Source: Patulibacter sp. (lineage in GTDB: Bacteria > Actinomycetota > Thermoleophilia > Solirubrobacterales > Solirubrobacteraceae). From it: 59,934 bases of DNA. This document shows positions 3,424 to 12,723 of this stretch, piece after piece. Below the pieces are notes generated by a model that did no database searches, was not told the origin of the DNA, and worked only from the letters and a program-made list of their open reading frames with translations. Within the stretch, counting starts at the first letter, position 1, and each line of letters begins with the position of its first letter. A program made the position numbers and the translations under genes. The stretch is taken from the NCBI RefSeq assembly GCF_030655195.1, contig NZ_JAURWA010000014.1, positions 1-59,934 on the forward strand. Direction: 5' to 3'.

Positions 3424-4179
3424 TCAGCCCTTCTTCGCCGTGGCCTTCGTGATGACGATCGGCTGCACGGGCGGCGCGTCGCCCCCGCTGTTCTGCGCGT
3501 CGATCGCGTCGACGACGTCCATGCCCGACACGACCGTGCCGACGATCGCGTAGTCCGGCGGGTAGCCGCCGTCCGCGGCGGTGACGATGAAGAACTGGCT
3601 GGAGCTGGCGCCGGGCGGGTCGGCGCTCGACTTGGCCATGGCCACGGTCCCGCGGGTGTAGGCGGCGTCGGCGGGCGTCGTCTCCTGCACGGTGTAGCCG
3701 GCGTCGCCGGTCCCGGTCCCCAGCGGGTCGCCGCCCTGGACGACGGTGCCCGGGACGATGCGGTGGAACGTCAGGCCGTCGTAGAAGCCGGCCGAGACGA
3801 GGGACTTAAACGACGCGGTGGTCTTGGGCTGGCGCGCCGTGTCCAGACGGATCCGGAACGAGCCGCAGCTCGTGCGCATGGTCACCGTCCACGTGCCCGA
3901 CAGCCGGGCCGGCTTGGGCTCGGGCTGGTCGGGCTCGCCCGAGCGGGGCTCGGGCTGCTCGACGCTGCGGCACGTCGGGGCCGGTGCGGCCTCCGTCGTC
4001 GTCTCCGGCGGGCCCTCGGCCTGGGTCGTGGCGGCCTCGGTGGAGGCGGTCGTGGATCCGCTCCCGGTGTCGTCGTCGCTCCCGCACGCGGCGAGCCCGG
4101 GGACGATCGCCGCGGTCGCGAGCAGCAGGACGACGCGGCGGGCGGCCGAAGACGTGGCGGAGGACGACGGGGAGGACAC
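3424..4179 (-). CDS. Cyclophilin-type peptidyl-prolyl isomerase lipoprotein
   Basis: A 251-residue exported lipoprotein. The signal peptide ends in a lipobox 'LAAC' (Cys at about 32). A Ser/Thr/Glu/Pro-rich spacer of some 60 residues follows, then a compact bacterial cyclophilin domain: 'FYDGLTFHRIVPGTVVQGGD', the 'SSSQFFIV' strand and 'YAIVGTVVSGMDVV'. The catalytic Arg of 'FHRI' is present, so prolyl isomerase activity on the outer face of the membrane is likely. The GTG at 4177-4179 lies 6 nt after TATGCT (complement of 4186-4191), which fits a leaderless transcript. The gene is divergent from the lipid kinase operon. Confidence 0.88.
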   Translation of the reverse strand: MSSPSSSATSSAARRVVLLLATAAIVPGLAACGSDDDTGSGSTTASTEAATTQAEGPPETTTEAAPAPTCRSVEQPEPRSGEPDQPEPKPARLSGTWTVTMRTSCGSFRIRLDTARQPKTTASFKSLVSAGFYDGLTFHRIVPGTVVQGGDPLGTGTGDAGYTVQETTPADAAYTRGTVAMAKSSADPPGASSSQFFIVTAADGGYPPDYAIVGTVVSGMDVVDAIDAQNSGGDAPPVQPIVITKATAKKG

Positions 4180-4290
4180 GGCGGCAGCATAGGCCGTCGG
4201 GTGCGCCCGACGCGGACCCGGACGTCCGGCCCGCTCGACCGGTCGTCCGCCTGCCGACGGGACGGCCGGGGGGCCGGGATACTCCGTGCC

Positions 4291-5337
4291 GTGCGTTCAC
4301 GGACCCACGACGACGCGCCGGGGGCCCCGGTGGGCCCCACGGACGGCGCGGCAGCGCCGTCGCGGTCCCTGACCCTGGTGGTCAACCCGACCGCGGGCGG
4401 CGGCCGCGCGGCGCGGACGGCCGTCGCCGCCGCGTCCCGGCTCCGGCACCGCGGGGCGACCGTGCGGACCGTCTCCACGCGCGACGCGGACCACGCCGCG
4501 CAGGAGGCCCGCGAGGCCTTCGACCGGGGCGACGTCGCGGTCGCCGTCGGCGGCGACGGGATGCTGCGGATCCTCGCCGGCGAGGCCGTCCGCCGCGACC
4601 ACGCGGTCGTGGGGCTCGTCCCGGCCGGTCGGGGCAACGACTTCGCCCGGTTCCTCGGCCTGCCGACGACCGTGGACGACGCCGTCGACGCCCTGCTGGA
4701 CGGCATCGAGGTCCTCGTCGACACCGGGCTCGTCCGGGACGCCGGAGGTCACGAGCGGACGTTCCTGTCGATGGTCTCCGTGGGGTTCGACGCCGAGGCC
4801 AACCGGATCGCCAACGAGGCGCCGTCCGCGCTCGGGGGGCTGGTCTACGTCTGGGGCGTGCTCGGCGCGCTCGCCGGCCTGCGGCCCGTGCCGCTGCGCC
4901 TGCGCACCGCCGCCGGGACGCGGGAGGTCCCGGCCCTGCTGCTCGCGGTCGCCAACGCGGGCGCCTACGGTGGGGGGATGCACATGGCTCCCCACGCCTC
5001 GGTCGGCGACGGCGAGCTCGACGTCGTCGTGGTCCCGCACCCGGGGCGCGATCGCCGGCCGGACCGCTGCGACGCCCGCGACCGCCTGCTGCTCCTCCGC
5101 GTCCTCCCCCGCGTCTTCCGTGGCACGCACGTGCGCACCCGGCACGTCGACGTCACGCGCGCCGCGTCGGTCGAGGTCTCGGCCGGCGGTCCGCTCGTCG
5201 CCTACGCCGACGGCGACCCGGTCGGCGTCCTGCCGCTGACCATCGAGGCCCGCCCCGCGTCGCTGCGCCTGCTCGTCCCCGCGGTCGACGGGCTGCGGCC
5301 CGGCGTCCTGCGCCGCGCCGGTGAGGTGGCGGCGTGA
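4291..5337 (+). CDS. Diacylglycerol kinase-family lipid kinase
   Basis: A 348-residue protein of the DgkB/YegS/BmrU lipid kinase family, which phosphorylates diacylglycerol or related lipids with ATP at the membrane. Visible motifs are 'VVNPTAGGGRAAR' (start of the catalytic domain), the nucleotide-binding 'VAVGGDGMLRIL' (the GGDG motif with Met where Thr is usual), 'PAGRGNDFARFLG' and 'SVGFDAEANRIAN'. The GTG start lies 7 nt after GATACT (4278-4283) with no Shine-Dalgarno. The stop overlaps the murT start by 4 nt, so the kinase is the first gene of the murT-gatD operon. There it may recycle undecaprenol or diacylglycerol; that role is inference. Confidence 0.87.
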   Translation: MRSRTHDDAPGAPVGPTDGAAAPSRSLTLVVNPTAGGGRAARTAVAAASRLRHRGATVRTVSTRDADHAAQEAREAFDRGDVAVAVGGDGMLRILAGEAVRRDHAVVGLVPAGRGNDFARFLGLPTTVDDAVDALLDGIEVLVDTGLVRDAGGHERTFLSMVSVGFDAEANRIANEAPSALGGLVYVWGVLGALAGLRPVPLRLRTAAGTREVPALLLAVANAGAYGGGMHMAPHASVGDGELDVVVVPHPGRDRRPDRCDARDRLLLLRVLPRVFRGTHVRTRHVDVTRAASVEVSAGGPLVAYADGDPVGVLPLTIEARPASLRLLVPAVDGLRPGVLRRAGEVAA

Positions 5338-6770
5338 GCACCACCTCCCCCGCCCCGACGGGCCGCTTCCCGCTCTCCGCCGCCGTCGCGACGGCCCGCC
5401 TGGCCGGCCGTGCCGCCCGGCTCGGCGGCCGCGGCGGCACGAGCCTGCCCGGCAAGGTGCTGACGCGCCTGCGGCCTGACGCGATCGCCCGCATGTCCGA
5501 CCGGCTCGACGAGGGCTCCGTCGTCCTCAGCGCGACGAACGGCAAGACGACGACCGCCGCCCTGGTCGCGTCGATCCTCGAGCTGCACGGCACGACGCTG
5601 GTCCACAACCGCCAGGGCGCGAACATGGCCGGCGGGATCGCCGCCTCGCTGCTCGGGTCGTGGCGGCACGGCCGACCGACGGGCGCGCTCGGGCTCTTCG
5701 AGGTCGACGAGTTCTGGCTCGACGGGCTGGTCCGGTCGCTGCGGCCGCGCGTCGTCCTGCTGGCCAACCTCTTCCGCGACCAGCTCGACCGGTACGGCGA
5801 GCTCGAGGCGATCGCCGACCGCTGGCACGAGATCGTCGCCGACGACGCCGCGCGGACCGCCGCCGGCGACGGGCCCGGGTTCCGCCTGGTCCTCGGCTCG
5901 GACGACCCCGCCGTGGCCGACCTCGGCCTGGACCGCGACGACGTCCTCTACTTCGGCGTGCAGGACGTCTCGGTCGCCCGCGAGGTCGCCGACCACGCCT
6001 CGGACGCCACCACCTGCCGCGTCTGCGGTGCGTCGTACGTGTACACCGCGACGTTCGTCGGCCACCTGGGGCACTACCGCTGCCCGGCGTGCGGCCACCG
6101 GCGTCCGGATCCGCAGGTCACCGCCGAGCGGGTCGTCCTCGACGCCACCCGCGGCTCGTCGTTCGACCTCGTCCTCCCGGACACGACCGTCCCCGTCCGG
6201 CTGCACCTGCCCGGGCTCTACAACGTCTACAACGCGCTCGGCGCCGCGGCGCTGACCCACGCCCTCGGCGTCCCCGCGGCGACGATCGCCGAGGGGCTGG
6301 GGACGACGGCCGCGGCGTTCGGGCGCGCCGAGACCGTCACGGTCGGCGACCGCGAGCTGCAGCTCCTGCTCGTGAAGAACCCCGCCGGTGCCAACGAGGT
6401 CGCCCGGACGCTCGCCCTGGCCGAGGGCGAGCTCGACCTGCTGGCGGTCCTCAACGACCGGATCGCCGACGGCCGCGACGTGTCCTGGATCTGGGACGCC
6501 GACCTCGAGGCGATCGCCGGCCGTGTGCGTCACGTGACCTGCGCCGGTTCCCGCGCCGAGGAGATGGCGGTCCGGTGGAAGTACGCCGGGGTGGCGTCGT
6601 CGCGGATCGCCGTCGTCAAGGACGGCGTCGGTGCGGCGCTGGACCACGCGCTCGCCGCCGCCCCGGAGGACCACGCCGTGCCGATCCACGCCATCCCGAC
6701 CTACACCGCGATGCTCGAGCTGCGCGAGGAGCTCGTGCGACGCGGTGCGGCCAAGGGGTCGTTCGCGTGA
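5334..6770 (+). CDS. murT: Lipid II isoglutaminyl synthase, ligase subunit MurT
   Basis: A 478-residue Mur-ligase homologue which, with GatD, amidates the alpha-carboxyl of D-Glu in lipid II to D-isoglutamine. The ATP loop 'SATNGKTTTAAL' (about 63-74) and 'EVDEFWL' mark the central ligase domain. A four-cysteine zinc ribbon specific to MurT is seen as 'CRVCG...CPACG' (about 225-255). The C-terminal DUF1727 domain includes 'VKNPAGANEVARTLAL' and 'NDRIADGRDVSWIWD'. It starts at a GTG that overlaps the stop of the lipid kinase gene and ends by overlapping the following methyltransferase gene. Amidation usually affects cross-linking and lysozyme resistance. Confidence 0.95.
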   Translation: MSTTSPAPTGRFPLSAAVATARLAGRAARLGGRGGTSLPGKVLTRLRPDAIARMSDRLDEGSVVLSATNGKTTTAALVASILELHGTTLVHNRQGANMAGGIAASLLGSWRHGRPTGALGLFEVDEFWLDGLVRSLRPRVVLLANLFRDQLDRYGELEAIADRWHEIVADDAARTAAGDGPGFRLVLGSDDPAVADLGLDRDDVLYFGVQDVSVAREVADHASDATTCRVCGASYVYTATFVGHLGHYRCPACGHRRPDPQVTAERVVLDATRGSSFDLVLPDTTVPVRLHLPGLYNVYNALGAAALTHALGVPAATIAEGLGTTAAAFGRAETVTVGDRELQLLLVKNPAGANEVARTLALAEGELDLLAVLNDRIADGRDVSWIWDADLEAIAGRVRHVTCAGSRAEEMAVRWKYAGVASSRIAVVKDGVGAALDHALAAAPEDHAVPIHAIPTYTAMLELREELVRRGAAKGSFA

Positions 6771-8421: not shown

Positions 8422-9381
8422 TCAGTTGGCGGGCTTGGCCAGGTCCGCGATCGTCTTCAGGCCGTACTTGTCGGCCGTGGCCTTCGTGACGACGATGGCG
8501 TCGCTGTCCTGCGCGTCGGACTTCTCGAGCGCGACCAGGTTGGACGGCAGCGCCTTCTGCAGCGCGGCGTAGACGTCGTCGGGCGTGGTCGCCGTCGCGT
8601 TCTTGTCGAGGTACGTCAGGATCGTGCCGCTGTACTCCGGGAAGAGGTCCAGCGAGCCGCTCTTCAGCGCCGGGTAGTACTTCTCGCGGCTGCCGATGTT
8701 CAGCTTCGTCGTGATCGACGCGCCCTGGGCCTTCAGCGCCTCGGCGTAGATCTCGGCGAGGACGACGTTCTCCGGGAAGTTCGCGGAGCCGACGGTCAGC
8801 GTCGTGCCCTTCGCGGACGTGCCGGTGCCGGCCAGGCCGTTGTCCGACAGCCACCCCTTGGCGACGGCGTCAGGGTCCTGCTTGTCGACCTGGACCTTCG
8901 AGACCAGGTCGCCGAGGCCGTCGGTGGTCAGCTTCGCCGAGATGCCGTTGAGGACCGTCTTGACCCCGTCGGTGGCCTTCTTCTCGTTGATGATCGGCAG
9001 GACGTCCTGCGCCGCGAAGTTGTTCTTCGGGTCCTCGAGGGCGACGAAGTCGTTCGCGGCGATCGACGGGTCGGTGGTGAAGAGGTCGGCCGCCTCGATC
9101 TGCCCGTTCTTCAGTGCGTTGACCGTCACCGGACCGCCGGTGTCGGTGACGGTGTACTTGCCGAACTCGACGCCGTAGTTCTTCTTCAGCCCGGGCAGGC
9201 CGTCGGTGCGGGTCTTGAACTCGGGCGGGCCGCCCATGATCAGTTGGCTGGCGATGGTCTCGCCCGCGCCGGAGGACGAGCTGCTGCTGCCGCTGTCGTC
9301 GGAGCTGTCGGAGCCGCAGGCGGACACGCCGAGGGCGAGGACTGCTGCGGCTGCTGCGGTCGTGAGGGTCCTGGTGTTCAT
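8422..9381 (-). CDS. Glycine betaine/choline-type ABC substrate-binding lipoprotein, lobes in permuted order
   Basis: A 319-residue lipoprotein with lipobox 'VSAC' (Cys22) and a Ser/Gly/Asp spacer, from the OpuAC/ProX family that feeds compatible solutes to an ABC importer. The order of its lobes is the reverse of the family's. The region normally C-terminal ('GGPPEFKTRTDGLPGLKKNYG' through 'DPDAVAKGWLSDNGL', residues 44-183) comes first. After a ten-residue linker (184-193) comes the normally N-terminal lobe ('LTVGSANFPENVVLAEIYAE' through 'YGLKTIADLAKPAN', 194-319). The break lies exactly at the interdomain crossover after 'DLAKPA'. An AGGAGA Shine-Dalgarno (complement of 9386-9391) lies 4 nt upstream. 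It is the last gene of the operon. Confidence 0.9.
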   Translation of the reverse strand: MNTRTLTTAAAAAVLALGVSACGSDSSDDSGSSSSSSGAGETIASQLIMGGPPEFKTRTDGLPGLKKNYGVEFGKYTVTDTGGPVTVNALKNGQIEAADLFTTDPSIAANDFVALEDPKNNFAAQDVLPIINEKKATDGVKTVLNGISAKLTTDGLGDLVSKVQVDKQDPDAVAKGWLSDNGLAGTGTSAKGTTLTVGSANFPENVVLAEIYAEALKAQGASITTKLNIGSREKYYPALKSGSLDLFPEYSGTILTYLDKNATATTPDDVYAALQKALPSNLVALEKSDAQDSDAIVVTKATADKYGLKTIADLAKPAN

Positions 9382-9468: not shown

Positions 9469-10233
9469 TCAGGCACGGGCGCCCTCGGCCTCGGTCACGA
9501 CGGCGAGCCGCGGATCGGGGGCGCCGACCTGCTTGGTCGAGTACCGCCCGGTGATGCCGCGCGAGACGACGTAGCGCTGGACCGTCGACAGGACGAGGTC
9601 GGTGAGGAGGGCCAGGGCCGCCACGAGGACGCCCCCGCCGATCATCTGCGGGTAGTCCTGCTGGGCCAGCCCGTCGTAGATGAAGCGACCCAGACCGCCG
9701 AGCGGCAGGTACGAGGCGACCGTCGCCGTCGCGATCAGCTGCAGGGCGGCGCTGCGCACGCCGGAGAAGATCAGCGGCAGGCTGATCGGCAGCTCGACCC
9801 GGAAGAGCACCTGCGGGCCGGTCATCCCCATCCCGGACGCCGCGTCGCGGACCCCCGGGTCGACGTTCTGCACGCCGGCGAAGGTGTTCGCCAGGATCGG
9901 CGGCACGGCGAGCAGGACCAGGACGATCACGGTCGGGATCAGGAAGCCGGTGTCGGTGCGCCCCTGGAACTGCGGCGAGATGATCACCGTCAGCAGCACG
10001 AGGACGCCGACCGTGGGCAGTGCGCGCAGCGCGTTCGCGGCGCCCACGAGCCACCGGCCCCGGTTGGTGTGCCCGATGAAGAGGCCCAGCGGCAGCGCGA
10101 TGACCATGGCGATCGCCAGCGCCATGGCGCAGAACCTGATGTGGGCCAGGAGCTGGGTGATGATGCCGGTGTCGAACCGGGTGTCGGTCCAGTGCGACCA
10201 GTCGGTCAGCCAGGTGAAGACGTCGCCGATCAT
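9469..10233 (-). CDS. ABC transporter permease, glycine betaine/choline type
   Basis: A 254-residue inner-membrane permease of the BPD-type family. About six hydrophobic segments are visible, and the cytoplasmic EAA loop reads 'DAASGMGMTGPQVLFRVELPISLPLIFSGV'. This surface contacts the ATPase. The ATG overlaps the stop of the upstream permease gene (ATGA). With the second permease it would form a heterodimeric channel. The region of about 87 nt before the binding-protein gene holds only that gene's Shine-Dalgarno. Confidence 0.9.
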   Translation of the reverse strand: MIGDVFTWLTDWSHWTDTRFDTGIITQLLAHIRFCAMALAIAMVIALPLGLFIGHTNRGRWLVGAANALRALPTVGVLVLLTVIISPQFQGRTDTGFLIPTVIVLVLLAVPPILANTFAGVQNVDPGVRDAASGMGMTGPQVLFRVELPISLPLIFSGVRSAALQLIATATVASYLPLGGLGRFIYDGLAQQDYPQMIGGGVLVAALALLTDLVLSTVQRYVVSRGITGRYSTKQVGAPDPRLAVVTEAEGARA

Positions 10234-10928
10234 GTGCGCACCGCCCGGCGCCAGGGGGTCAGCACGCGGTTGAGGAGCACCACCGCGGAGTCCAGGACGA
10301 CCGCCAGGAGGACGCAGAGGACGATCCCCAGGACGATCGGCGGGTAGTACGCGTCCGGCGTCGAGAGCTGGAAGCCCTGCGTGAACAGCTGGCCGAGGTT
10401 CGACAGGCCGATGGTGCCGGCCACCGCGACGATGCTGACGTTGGACACGACCGCGACCCGCAGGCCCGCGGCGATGACCGGGACCGCGATGGGCAGCTCG
10501 ACCTTGAAGAACCGCTCGAGGGGACGGAAGCCCATGGCGGTCGCCGCCTGCGTGGTCTCCTCCGGCACCGAGGCCAGCCCGTCGGCGACGACGCGCACGA
10601 GCAGCGCCACGGAGTAGACGGTCAGGGCGATCGGGACCTGGAGGGGGTCGAGCGTGTCGAGTCCCAGGAGGGGCGGGACGAGCACGAACAGGGCGATCGA
10701 GGGGATCGTGTAGAGCACCCCGGTGATCGACATGATCGGCGGGTAGGTCCACCGGTGGCGGCGGGCGACCCAGCCCAGCGGCAGGGCGATGAGCAGCCCG
10801 ACGATGACCGGGACCACCGACAGCCACGTGTGGGACCAGAGCAGGCCGAGGTCCTCGCTGCGGTGGTCGAGGAAGTACTCGACGAAGTGCAGCGGCGACG
10901 AGCTGGCGCCGTCGGCGAGCGCGATCAC
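10230..10928 (-). CDS. ABC transporter permease, glycine betaine/choline type
   Basis: A 232-residue second permease of the same importer. The segment 'HTWLSVVPVIVGLLIALPLGW' begins the membrane domain, and the EAA loop reads 'QAATAMGFRPLERFFKVELPIAVPVI'. The GTG start overlaps the ATPase gene stop (GTGA), and its own stop overlaps the next permease start, so the genes are translationally coupled. The pairing of two different permeases with one ATPase and one lipoprotein is the OpuB/OpuC layout rather than the single-permease OpuA layout. Confidence 0.9.
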   Translation of the reverse strand: MIALADGASSSPLHFVEYFLDHRSEDLGLLWSHTWLSVVPVIVGLLIALPLGWVARRHRWTYPPIMSITGVLYTIPSIALFVLVPPLLGLDTLDPLQVPIALTVYSVALLVRVVADGLASVPEETTQAATAMGFRPLERFFKVELPIAVPVIAAGLRVAVVSNVSIVAVAGTIGLSNLGQLFTQGFQLSTPDAYYPPIVLGIVLCVLLAVVLDSAVVLLNRVLTPWRRAVRT

Positions 10929-12028
10929 GTCTGTCGCTCCGGCTCGTGGGCCTCGATCAGGTCGAGGATCTCGCGGGACGTCGTGGTGCCGATCAGGGCG
11001 CCGCCCTCGTCGATGACGACCCCGCGGCCCGAGGGCGACGACAGGCAGGCGTCGAGGGCGGCCCGCAGGGTGCTGCCCTGGGTCGCCAGCGTCCCGCCGC
11101 GGTAGAGCAGCTCGTCCGTGACGGTGTCGTGGCCGCGGAAGTCCGCGCCGAGGTCGAGCCAGCCCTGCGGGGCGCCGGCGCCGTCGACGGCCAGCAGCCA
11201 CGAGTCGCCGTCGGTGCCGGTGGGGATCGGTGCCCCGAGGACGACGGTCGGCTCGTCGCGGGTCGACAGGGTCCCCGCGTCGGCGAACCCGAGCGCCCGG
11301 TACCCGCGGTCGCGGCCGACGAAGGCGGCGACGAACGCGTCGACCGGACGGCTGAGCAGCTCGGCCGGCGTCGCGAGCTGCGCGAGCCGCCCGCCGACGC
11401 GGAGCACCGCGACCTGGTCGCCGAGCTTGATGGCCTCGTCGATGTCGTGGGTGACGAACACGATCGTCTTGCCGAGCTCCTGCTGCAGGCGGAGGAACTC
11501 GTCCTGGAGCTGCTCGCGCACGACCGGGTCCACGGCGCTGAACGGCTCGTCCATCAGCATCACCGGAGGATCGGCCGCCAGGGCGCGGGCGACGCCGACG
11601 CGCTGCTGCTGCCCGCCGGAGAGCTGGGCCGGGTAGCGCTTGGCGAAGTGCTCCGGCAGGCCGACGCGCTCGAGCAGCTCCATCGCGGTGCGACGGGCCT
11701 GCTTCTTGTCCGTCCCGAGCAGGAACGGGACGGTCGCGACGTTGTCGACGATCGTCCGGTGCGGGAAGAGCCCGGCGTGCTGGATGACGTAGCCGATCTT
11801 GCGGCGCAGCTCGTGGGTCGGGAGCGTGGCGGTGTCCTGGTCGTCCAGCCAGATCGTGCCGGAGGTCGGCTCGATCATCCGGTTGACCATCCGCAGGCTC
11901 GTCGTCTTGCCGCACCCGGATGGGCCGACGAGGACGGTGATCCGTCCCGACGCCGCCTCGAGGTCGAGCTCGTCGACGGCGACCGTGCCGTCGGGGTAGC
12001 GCTTCGTCACCGCGTCGAATCGGATCAC
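10925..12028 (-). CDS. ABC transporter ATP-binding protein, glycine betaine/choline type
   Basis: A 367-residue ATPase driving the importer. Walker A is 'GPSGCGKTTS', the Q-loop lies near 'YVIQHAGLFPH', the signature is 'LSGGQQQRVGVARAL', Walker B is 'VMLMDEPFSAVD' and the switch is 'VFVTHDIDEAI'. The C-terminal 120 residues contain a CBS-like tail ('GSTLRAALDACLSSPSGRGVVIDEGG'), used in OpuA-type ATPases to sense ionic strength. The GTG start overlaps the IclR gene stop by 4 nt (GTGA). The four transporter genes and the regulator therefore appear to be one transcript. Confidence 0.93.
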   Translation of the reverse strand: MIRFDAVTKRYPDGTVAVDELDLEAASGRITVLVGPSGCGKTTSLRMVNRMIEPTSGTIWLDDQDTATLPTHELRRKIGYVIQHAGLFPHRTIVDNVATVPFLLGTDKKQARRTAMELLERVGLPEHFAKRYPAQLSGGQQQRVGVARALAADPPVMLMDEPFSAVDPVVREQLQDEFLRLQQELGKTIVFVTHDIDEAIKLGDQVAVLRVGGRLAQLATPAELLSRPVDAFVAAFVGRDRGYRALGFADAGTLSTRDEPTVVLGAPIPTGTDGDSWLLAVDGAGAPQGWLDLGADFRGHDTVTDELLYRGGTLATQGSTLRAALDACLSSPSGRGVVIDEGGALIGTTTSREILDLIEAHEPERQT

Positions 12029-12723
12029 GGGCGGGTCTCCTGTCCTGTGGTGTCGGTCGACGGCGTCGCGCCGAGGTGGCCGCTCAGGACGCGGGCCTCC
12101 TCGGCGAGGATCGCGCCGTAGCGGTGCAGGGTGGCGTCGTCGATCCGGTAGCTGGGGCCGAGCAGGCTCATCGCCGCGGCGACCCCGCCGGGCCGCAGGA
12201 TCGGCGCGACGATCGCGGTGACGTCCGGCTCGAGCCGGTCGTGCTCGGAGACGTAGCCGCACGCCGGCACGTCGTCGGCGAGCGCGCGGCCGACCACGAG
12301 GCCGGCGGTCGGGAACGACCGGCCGACCCAGCTGGTGTGGCGCACCGCGTGCGTCCCCTCGACCATGGCGATGTGGATCGCGGTCCCGCCCGGGCCGGCG
12401 ATCGTCAGGTAGGCGGACTCGCCGGTGGCGCCGACCAGGCGGTCGAGCACGGGCTCGGCGATCCGGACGAGGCTCTGGCGCCCGAGGGCGAGCGCACCGA
12501 GCTGGATCAGGCGGGAGCCGGCACGGAAGCAGCCCTCCTCGTCCCGGGTGACGAAGCCCGAGCCCTCGAGCGTCCGCAGCAGCCGCAGCGCCGTGCTGGC
12601 CGGCAGCTCGGCGCGCCTCGCGCACTCGGACAGGCCGATGGAGTCCTCCGCGCAGACCTCGGCGAGCAGGGCCAGGGCCCGGTCCACGGTGCGGGTGGTG
12701 CCCGCGCTTGCCGCCGTCGCCAT
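12025..12723 (-). CDS. IclR-family transcriptional regulator
   Basis: A 232-residue regulator with an N-terminal winged helix-turn-helix (about 10-70: 'VDRALALLAEVC' and 'LPASTALRLLRTLEGSGFV') and a C-terminal effector-binding domain ('AEPVLDRLVGATGESAYL', 'GRSFPTAGLVVGRALA', 'APILRPGGVAAAMSLLG'). It leads the transporter operon, so it probably controls uptake in response to the solute or its catabolite and may regulate itself. Upstream (12724-12837) a GCAA-N5-TTGC inverted repeat at about 12757-12769 is a weak operator candidate. A TAGGGC hexamer lies 6 nt before the ATG. Confidence 0.88.
   Translation of the reverse strand: MATAASAGTTRTVDRALALLAEVCAEDSIGLSECARRAELPASTALRLLRTLEGSGFVTRDEEGCFRAGSRLIQLGALALGRQSLVRIAEPVLDRLVGATGESAYLTIAGPGGTAIHIAMVEGTHAVRHTSWVGRSFPTAGLVVGRALADDVPACGYVSEHDRLEPDVTAIVAPILRPGGVAAAMSLLGPSYRIDDATLHRYGAILAEEARVLSGHLGATPSTDTTGQETRP

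What the first reader, a model, noticed from the sequence alone, without database searches (positions are those of the whole stretch)
8422..9381. Circularly permuted glycine betaine/choline-binding lipoprotein
The residues that form the second lobe in OpuAC/ProX proteins ('GGPPEF...KGWLSDNGL', 44-183) precede those of the first lobe ('LTVGSANFPEN...DLAKPAN', 194-319). A short flexible linker replaces the old N/C junction. The cut falls at the interdomain crossover ('DLAKPA' / 'SQLIMGGPPEF'), so the fold could close normally while being tethered to the membrane from the other lobe. The reading frame is intact and the gene sits in a normal, coupled operon. I do not know of a described natural case in this family.
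Basis: partly seen in the sequence, partly recalled or inferred. Interest (0 to 1): 0.85.

Follow-up and report, generated by a model that had tools for sequence, protein, structure and literature searches.

The report
Recurrently permuted ABC-importer binding protein
A bacterial nutrient-catching lipoprotein has its two halves encoded in swapped order; the same swap is known in one relative, but this branch of the family appears to have been re-cut several separate times, at three different places.

Summary
The minus-strand ORF 9381-8422 (319 aa) is an intact lipoprotein of Pfam PF04069 (OpuAC), with the C-terminal half of the standard domain (residues 44-183) before the N-terminal half (194-319). 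The five best PDB matches of a confident AlphaFold model are all B. subtilis OpuAC; a normal-order sister (L025) matches EgtUC, ProX and OpuBC instead. So the swap is not new to the family: B. subtilis OpuAC (2B4L) is cut at the same place, and permutation among such proteins was reported in 2008 (PMC2395249). The cut lies inside lobe D2, not at the interdomain crossover. The betaine aromatic cage is incomplete, so the betaine/choline label is not supported. What looks new: this OpuC/OsmU/EgtU-like branch in Actinomycetota and Chloroflexota holds permutants at three cut sites. One clade for all permutants, or for all site-1 permutants, is rejected on the binding protein and on the linked permease; parsimony gives 10 and 8 changes of cut-site label. 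All three cuts open lobe D2, so the lipid anchor should move from D1 to D2. Best reading: a working importer binding protein of unknown ligand, in a family with recurrent circular permutation. Gains and reversions cannot be told apart.

The parts
8422..9381 (-). Circularly permuted PF04069 substrate-binding lipoprotein, 319 aa
9316..9381 (-). Signal peptide (residues 1-21) and lipobox cysteine (residue 22)
   Evidence: sequence LGVSAC; by eye, no signal-peptide predictor was run
9253..9315 (-). Ser/Gly/Asp-rich tether, residues 23-43
   Evidence: residues 1-17 of the mature model have pLDDT under 50
8833..9252 (-). Residues 44-183: C-terminal half of the standard domain, placed first
8803..8832 (-). 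Residues 184-193: linker joining the old C- and N-termini
8425..8802 (-). Residues 194-319: N-terminal half of the standard domain, placed last; the protein ends at TIADLAKPAN
9469..10233 (-). ABC permease B (BPD_transp_1)
   Evidence: PF00528 E 6.9e-21; start inferred
10230..10928 (-). ABC permease A (BPD_transp_1)
   Evidence: PF00528 E 1.2e-20; start inferred
10925..12028 (-). ABC ATPase
   Evidence: PF00005 E 2.4e-35; start inferred
12025..12723 (-). IclR-family regulator
   Evidence: PF01614 and PF09339

Best explanation
The gene encodes the membrane-anchored binding protein of an OpuC/OsmU-type ABC importer (ATPase, two permeases, binding protein). Its Venus-flytrap domain is circularly permuted: the old ends are joined by a short linker and new ends open in lobe D2, between the helix TIADLAK and the strand LIMGG. 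The fold and the pocket positions that I checked are kept, so it should bind its ligand between the lobes and dock on the permeases like its normal-order sisters, but be tethered from lobe D2 instead of D1. The ligand is probably not held by the canonical four-aromatic betaine cage. It belongs to one of several permuted groups in this family; permutation recurred here at three cut sites, most likely through tandem duplication followed by a new start and stop. Shown: order, intact frame, confident predicted fold, spread, operon, rejection of one clade. Inferred: binding, transport, the effect on the tether, the duplication mechanism, gains rather than reversions.
For: Order and intact frame. 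Fold: model mean pLDDT 92.3, pTM 0.85; the top five PDB hits are all B. subtilis OpuAC (5nxx, 2b4l, 2b4m, two chains of 3chg; TM 0.60-0.74 over 290-298 columns), while EgtUC, OpuBC, OpuCC and ProX rows among the 50 listed reach TM 0.35-0.43. Control: the normal-order sister L025 (pLDDT 94.9, pTM 0.91) hits EgtUC, ProX and OpuBC at TM up to 0.90, and 2b4l, 2b4m, 3chg and 5nxx are absent from the 50 rows listed. Spread: 187 distinct rows: 110 normal, 41 site 1, 5 site 2 plus 1 probable, 30 site 3. Origins: 10 changes of label on the 107-row binding-protein tree; AU p 9e-73 (site 1 as one clade) and 7e-47 (all permutants). The linked, unpermuted permease gives 8 changes on 105 rows, p 4e-49 and 9e-61. 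A loose lipobox pattern is present in 40 of 43 site-1, 6 of 6 site-2, 30 of 30 site-3 and 108 of 111 normal ORFs. The same operon order surrounds permuted (L005, L009, L012) and normal (L025) orthologues (22 loci looked at). Cage positions read Y-D-F-Q in all 19 permutants of the window's clade and in 35 of 82 normal-order rows, both rows of its sister pair included.
Against: No binding or transport was measured. The best TM-scores to OpuAC are moderate, and other type II binding proteins reach up to 0.54. Trees cannot tell gains from reversions; well-supported branches force only 5 (binding protein) and 2 (permease) changes of the site-1 label. Trees of the single halves are poorly resolved (13 and 14 changes; starred branches force 3 for site 1). 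Site 2 as one clade is not rejected (p 0.50). No remnant half-gene was found within 600 bases of permuted genes (79 downstream and 77 upstream stretches, window halves as query) except the tandem copies in L006 and L017, and no fused double-domain ORF among the 207 matching ORFs, so the duplication step is not seen directly.
Confidence: 0.8

Rival explanations
1. One ancient permutation: all site-1 genes descend from one permuted ancestor, and normal-order genes among them are reversions or the result of mistaken trees.
For: Site-1 groups share the same cut and linkers of similar length (3-10 residues). Label changes cannot be polarised on an unrooted tree.
Against: One clade is rejected on the binding protein and on the permease; 0 of 200 bootstrap trees have site 1 as one clade in either. 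Reversion would need the same kind of event in the opposite direction. Sites 2 and 3 are different cuts in any case.
Confidence: 0.15
2. Permutation is selectively neutral (compatible with the best explanation except for the tether): D2 loops simply tolerate a cut, and re-tethering has no functional meaning.
For: Operon order and cage positions are alike in both orders. The cuts lie at or near helix-to-strand loops.
Against: All three cuts fall in lobe D2, about a third of the domain. Site-3 permutants carry a special Cys pair (27 of 30; 0 of 43 site-1, 0 of 5 site-2, 1 of 111 normal ORFs). Permuted groups are widespread. None of this proves selection.
Confidence: 0.5
3. Assembly artefact, or a broken gene that is not translated.
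For: The window's assembly is in 198 contigs.
Against: Intact frame, lipobox, high identity and same order in many independent genomes, isolates included.
Confidence: 0.01
4. It is a standard glycine betaine/choline-binding protein.
For: PF04069 membership; weak NCBIfam match to OsmF, 88.6 bits against a cut-off of 400.
Against: The positions of EgtUC cage residues N339, Y341 and Y443 are Asp292, Asp294 and Gln125; only Tyr250 and Phe101 keep aromatics (cage from PMC9732360, passages read).
Confidence: 0.15

Closest known systems
Bacillus subtilis OpuAC (PDB 2B4L, 2B4M, 3CHG, 5NXX)
   Same: PF04069; C-half first; same cut site (best Pfam stretch 2-135 on profile 122-256); the five best fold matches; a lipoprotein (recalled).
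   Different: OpuA branch; not found by phmmer with the window protein at E<=1, 14-17% identity by Foldseek. OpuA-branch relatives such as L. lactis OpuAC are in normal order, so it is probably an independent event.
EgtUC, A. fulgidus ProX, OpuBC/OpuCC, OsmF/YehZ (normal order)
   Same: Closest solved relatives by sequence, half by half; same two-lobed fold, shown by the normal-order sister.
   Different: Unpermuted. EgtUC, ProX, OpuBC and OpuCC have the aromatic cage (PMC9732360), which the window protein lacks in part.
Treponema pallidum Tp0684/MglB-2 (passages read, PMC4990184)
   Same: Naturally circularly permuted binding lipoprotein; its authors raise membrane tethering as a possible reason.
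   Different: Type I/cluster B sugar-binding fold, unrelated family, another cut.
CPSARST permutation family of glycine-betaine-binding proteins (PMC2395249, passages and one section read)
   Same: Reports permutation among 2B4L, 1R9L and 1SW1, molybdate-binding proteins and CysB.
   Different: Structure-based, six proteins; in the section read there are no Actinomycetota genes, no recurrence within one branch and no further cut sites.

Membership tests
PF04069 (OpuAC domain) | Profile match above the curated cut-off | tested here: met
   176.7 bits against 21.2
PF04069 (OpuAC domain) | Standard order of the domain | tested here: not met
   halves swapped; the founding B. subtilis OpuAC is swapped too, so this is no reason for exclusion
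Natural circular permutant at the B. subtilis OpuAC site | Both halves present once, swapped; same new ends; same fold | tested here: met
   with control 73, 76
Quaternary-ammonium binder with aromatic cage (subcluster F-III) | Four aromatics (EgtUC F293, Y341, Y419, Y443) plus N339 | tested here: not met
   Y250, D294, F101, Q125 and D292
EgtU (ergothioneine) | Y341, Y443 and N339 of the cage | tested here: not met
   Asp, Gln and Asp at these positions
OsmF (NCBIfam NF049931) | Score over the equivalog cut-off | tested here: not met
   88.6 bits against 400
OpuC-type ABC importer | ATPase, two permeases and binding protein side by side | tested here: met
OpuC-type ABC importer | Uptake of compatible solutes | not testable with these tools
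   needs transport assays

The most novel reading that the evidence does not exclude
A binding-protein family in which circular permutation is a repeatable evolutionary move: at least three cut sites and several separate events (parsimony 8-10 changes of label), every cut opening lobe D2 and so flipping the membrane anchor from lobe D1 to D2. One group (site 3) adds a Cys pair that may staple the new end. Re-tethering from the other lobe would then be the selected trait.
Probability: 0.35. Interest if true: 0.8.

Novelty: new variant of a known kind. Interest (0 to 1): 0.6.

Why it matters
Natural circular permutants are known in many families, but I know of few cases (recalled, not searched for beyond the calls named) where one orthologous operon slot holds normal and permuted genes with three different cut sites. 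That makes two questions testable: how permutations arise, and whether it matters which lobe of a binding protein is tied to the membrane. Practically, half-by-half homology hides such genes, and betaine/choline labels on them should not be trusted.

Tried and rejected
Considered and rejected: assembly artefact (same order in independent isolates). Standard order under a profile alignment. Single origin of all permutants. A fourth cut site in G048, suggested by a partial match: the ORF is in normal order. Remnant half-genes beside permuted genes: none except tandem copies. Fused double-domain intermediates: none among the 207 matching ORFs. A 'DxGGP' motif as a mark shared by permutants alone: it is also in the consensus of the normal-order sisters, so it was dropped. 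L088, a distant site-1 permutant, has a very long branch and was left out of the 80-row tree but kept in the 107-row tree.

Rows dropped before counts: duplicate loci of one place; two antisense or marginal ORFs (in L069 and L055; they are still in the 109 rows); L151 (fragment at a contig end); rows under 235 residues and near-identical rows of one label when thinning 187 to 107; 164 permease rows thinned to 105.

Literature, nine searches. Known permuted binding proteins came up (CPSARST paper; MglB-2). Searches found no paper; the rows shown gave none on natural permutants of this family. Searches listed only part of the papers that they counted. The L. lactis OpuAC structure paper (PMC2861598) does not use the word permut; PMC3688454 uses it for a membrane domain only (passages). 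The library holds only open-licence PMC papers, so a subscription paper on this could exist.

Full report
What is there. The stretch 9381-8422 on the minus strand is one open frame of 319 aa from ATG to TGA. It starts with a signal peptide, a lipobox (by eye) and a Ser/Gly/Asp tether. phmmer against the PDB splits it in two: 43-183 matches the C-half and about 196-316 the N-half of EgtUC in the five alignments shown; the ProX, OpuBC/OpuCC and OsmF rows also have two stretches, of which only the best is listed. Pfam finds PF04069 in two stretches and the genome search shows them in swapped order.

Fold. An AlphaFold model of the mature protein from 27 permuted sequences, its own included, has mean pLDDT 92.3 and pTM 0.85. 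Its five best PDB hits are all B. subtilis OpuAC (TM 0.60-0.74 over 290-298 columns). The EgtUC, OpuBC, OpuCC and ProX rows among the 50 listed reach 0.35-0.43, although they are closest by sequence; other type II binding proteins reach up to 0.54. As a control, the normal-order sister L025 (30 sequences, pLDDT 94.9, pTM 0.91) hits EgtUC, ProX and OpuBC at TM up to 0.90, and 2b4l, 2b4m, 3chg and 5nxx are absent from the 50 rows listed. Entry 5nxy there bears OpuAC in its title, but its chain is OpuCC by its molecule name. The order of secondary-structure elements in the two models is a rotation of one another.

Prior art. B. subtilis OpuAC, which gave the family its name, has the same order and the same cut. 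Its chain ends in SIEDLKK and its domain begins with the strand IIGIDPGS, and Pfam puts its residues 2-135 of 257 on profile 122-256. L. lactis OpuAC and the other OpuA-branch chains whose alignments were shown are in normal order. A 2008 paper reports permutation among glycine-betaine-binding proteins (PMC2395249; passages and one section read). T. pallidum MglB-2 is a permuted lipoprotein of another fold, for which tethering was raised as a possible reason (PMC4990184; passages read).

Where the cut lies. By the EgtUC boundaries (D1 232-331 and 445-503, D2 341-432; PMC9732360, passages read) and the alignment, the new ends lie inside D2, after the helix TIADLAK, not at the crossover. In EgtUC the N-terminus belongs to D1; here the N-terminus, and with it the anchor, belongs to D2 (inference from topology).

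Spread. A scan of genome contigs gave 80 loci. With the loci, an order test and removal of duplicates left 109 binding-protein rows, 27 of them permuted. Among 396 genomes of the window's phylum (Actinomycetota by its kin), 86 have a match at E<=1e-40; of the 30 loci fetched, 16 (one per genome, the window's included) are permuted and 14 normal. In 118 genomes of the order of G412, 27 loci were fetched: 5 are site 2, two more are probable site 2 (L150 by eye; L151 is cut off by the contig end), 4 are site 1 and 16 are normal. In 150 genomes of the order of G240, 54 have a match and all 30 loci fetched are site 3; the query was itself a site-3 protein, so this is not a frequency, and one further locus of that order, in G571, is site 1. 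In 201 genomes of the phylum of G663 (record title of its locus: Chloroflexi), 23 have a match at E<=1e-45: 5 site 1, 18 normal.

Three cut sites. In window-protein numbering the new N-termini correspond to residue 44 (site 1, the window), about 75 (site 2) and about 108 (site 3). All lie in D2, at or near helix-to-strand loops. A loose lipobox pattern is present in 40 of 43, 6 of 6 and 30 of 30 ORFs of these kinds, and in 108 of 111 normal ones. Of 30 site-3 ORFs, 27 carry two extra cysteines, one before the first piece and one at the old site-1 junction; 0 of 43 site-1, 0 of 5 site-2 and 1 of 111 normal ORFs have both. I read them as a possible disulfide that pins the new end.

How many events. 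On 107 rotated rows the cut-site label needs 10 changes. Site 1 needs 6 (5 forced by well-supported branches), site 2 three (2 forced), site 3 one. Holding all site-1 rows, or all permutants, as one clade is rejected (AU p 9e-73 and 7e-47); site 2 as one clade is not (p 0.50). To exclude an effect of rotation I used the adjacent permease, which is not permuted: 105 rows, 8 changes (site 1 five, only 2 forced), and one clade again rejected (p 4e-49 and 9e-61). Trees of each half alone are poorly resolved and need 13 and 14 changes. The rejection is strong under these models, but gain and reversion cannot be told apart, and the exact number is not known.

Window clade. The window protein sits in a site-1 clade of 19 rows whose sister is a pair of normal-order rows (L051, L055; 97/93 support). 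Of 22 loci looked at, the order ATPase-permease-permease-binding protein is seen in permuted and normal orthologues alike where the flank is long enough. A match to the window's IclR regulator precedes it in permuted L005, L009, L012, L016 and L017 and in normal L025, and is not seen in permuted L006, L015 and L018 or in normal L027, L051 and L055. The permutation thus seems to have happened in place. Tandem permuted copies in P. minatonensis (L006), Allobranchiibius (L017), and G597 and G627 (site 3; L229, L230) show that the gene does duplicate in tandem, as the usual model of permutation requires (recalled), though these copies are already permuted. No fused intermediate was seen.

Ligand. 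The EgtUC cage is F293, Y341, Y419, Y443 and N339. The window protein has Tyr250, Asp294, Phe101, Gln125 and Asp292 there. The letters Y-D-F-Q at the four aromatic positions hold in all 19 permutants of the window clade and in 35 of 82 normal-order rows, both sisters included; the other 8 permuted rows differ (Y-N-F-D or Y-D-F-G). So permutation did not change these positions in the window's clade, and the ligand is probably shared with its normal-order sisters and probably not a standard betaine. The real ligand is unknown.

Verdict. Real and well conserved; the single swap is already known in kind. The recurrence at three cut sites is the new part.

Noticed in passing
L006 (P. minatonensis) 3708-5834; L017 4932-6907: Two permuted binding-protein genes in tandem at the end of the operon.
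   Followed up: partly
L133, L172-L201: Site-3 permutants: cut at about residue 108 of the window protein, with a special Cys pair in 27 of 30.
   Followed up: partly
L127/L145, L129/L146, L147, L148, L149, L150: Site-2 permutants: cut at about residue 75 of the window protein.
   Followed up: partly
L001 (own genome, contig C62): The window's genome also holds a normal-order PF04069 protein of a distant branch in its own operon.
   Followed up: no
genus of the window's genome, G000-G007: Close full-length permuted orthologues are in 3 of 8 genomes of the genus, one of the 8 only 75% complete; other near relatives are in records titled Frankiales, Nocardioides and Pseudonocardiales, which suggests gene transfer.
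   Followed up: no
L088 (G019) 1432-2346: Very divergent site-1 permutant (32-33% identity) in the window's family of bacteria; may be a further event.
   Followed up: partly
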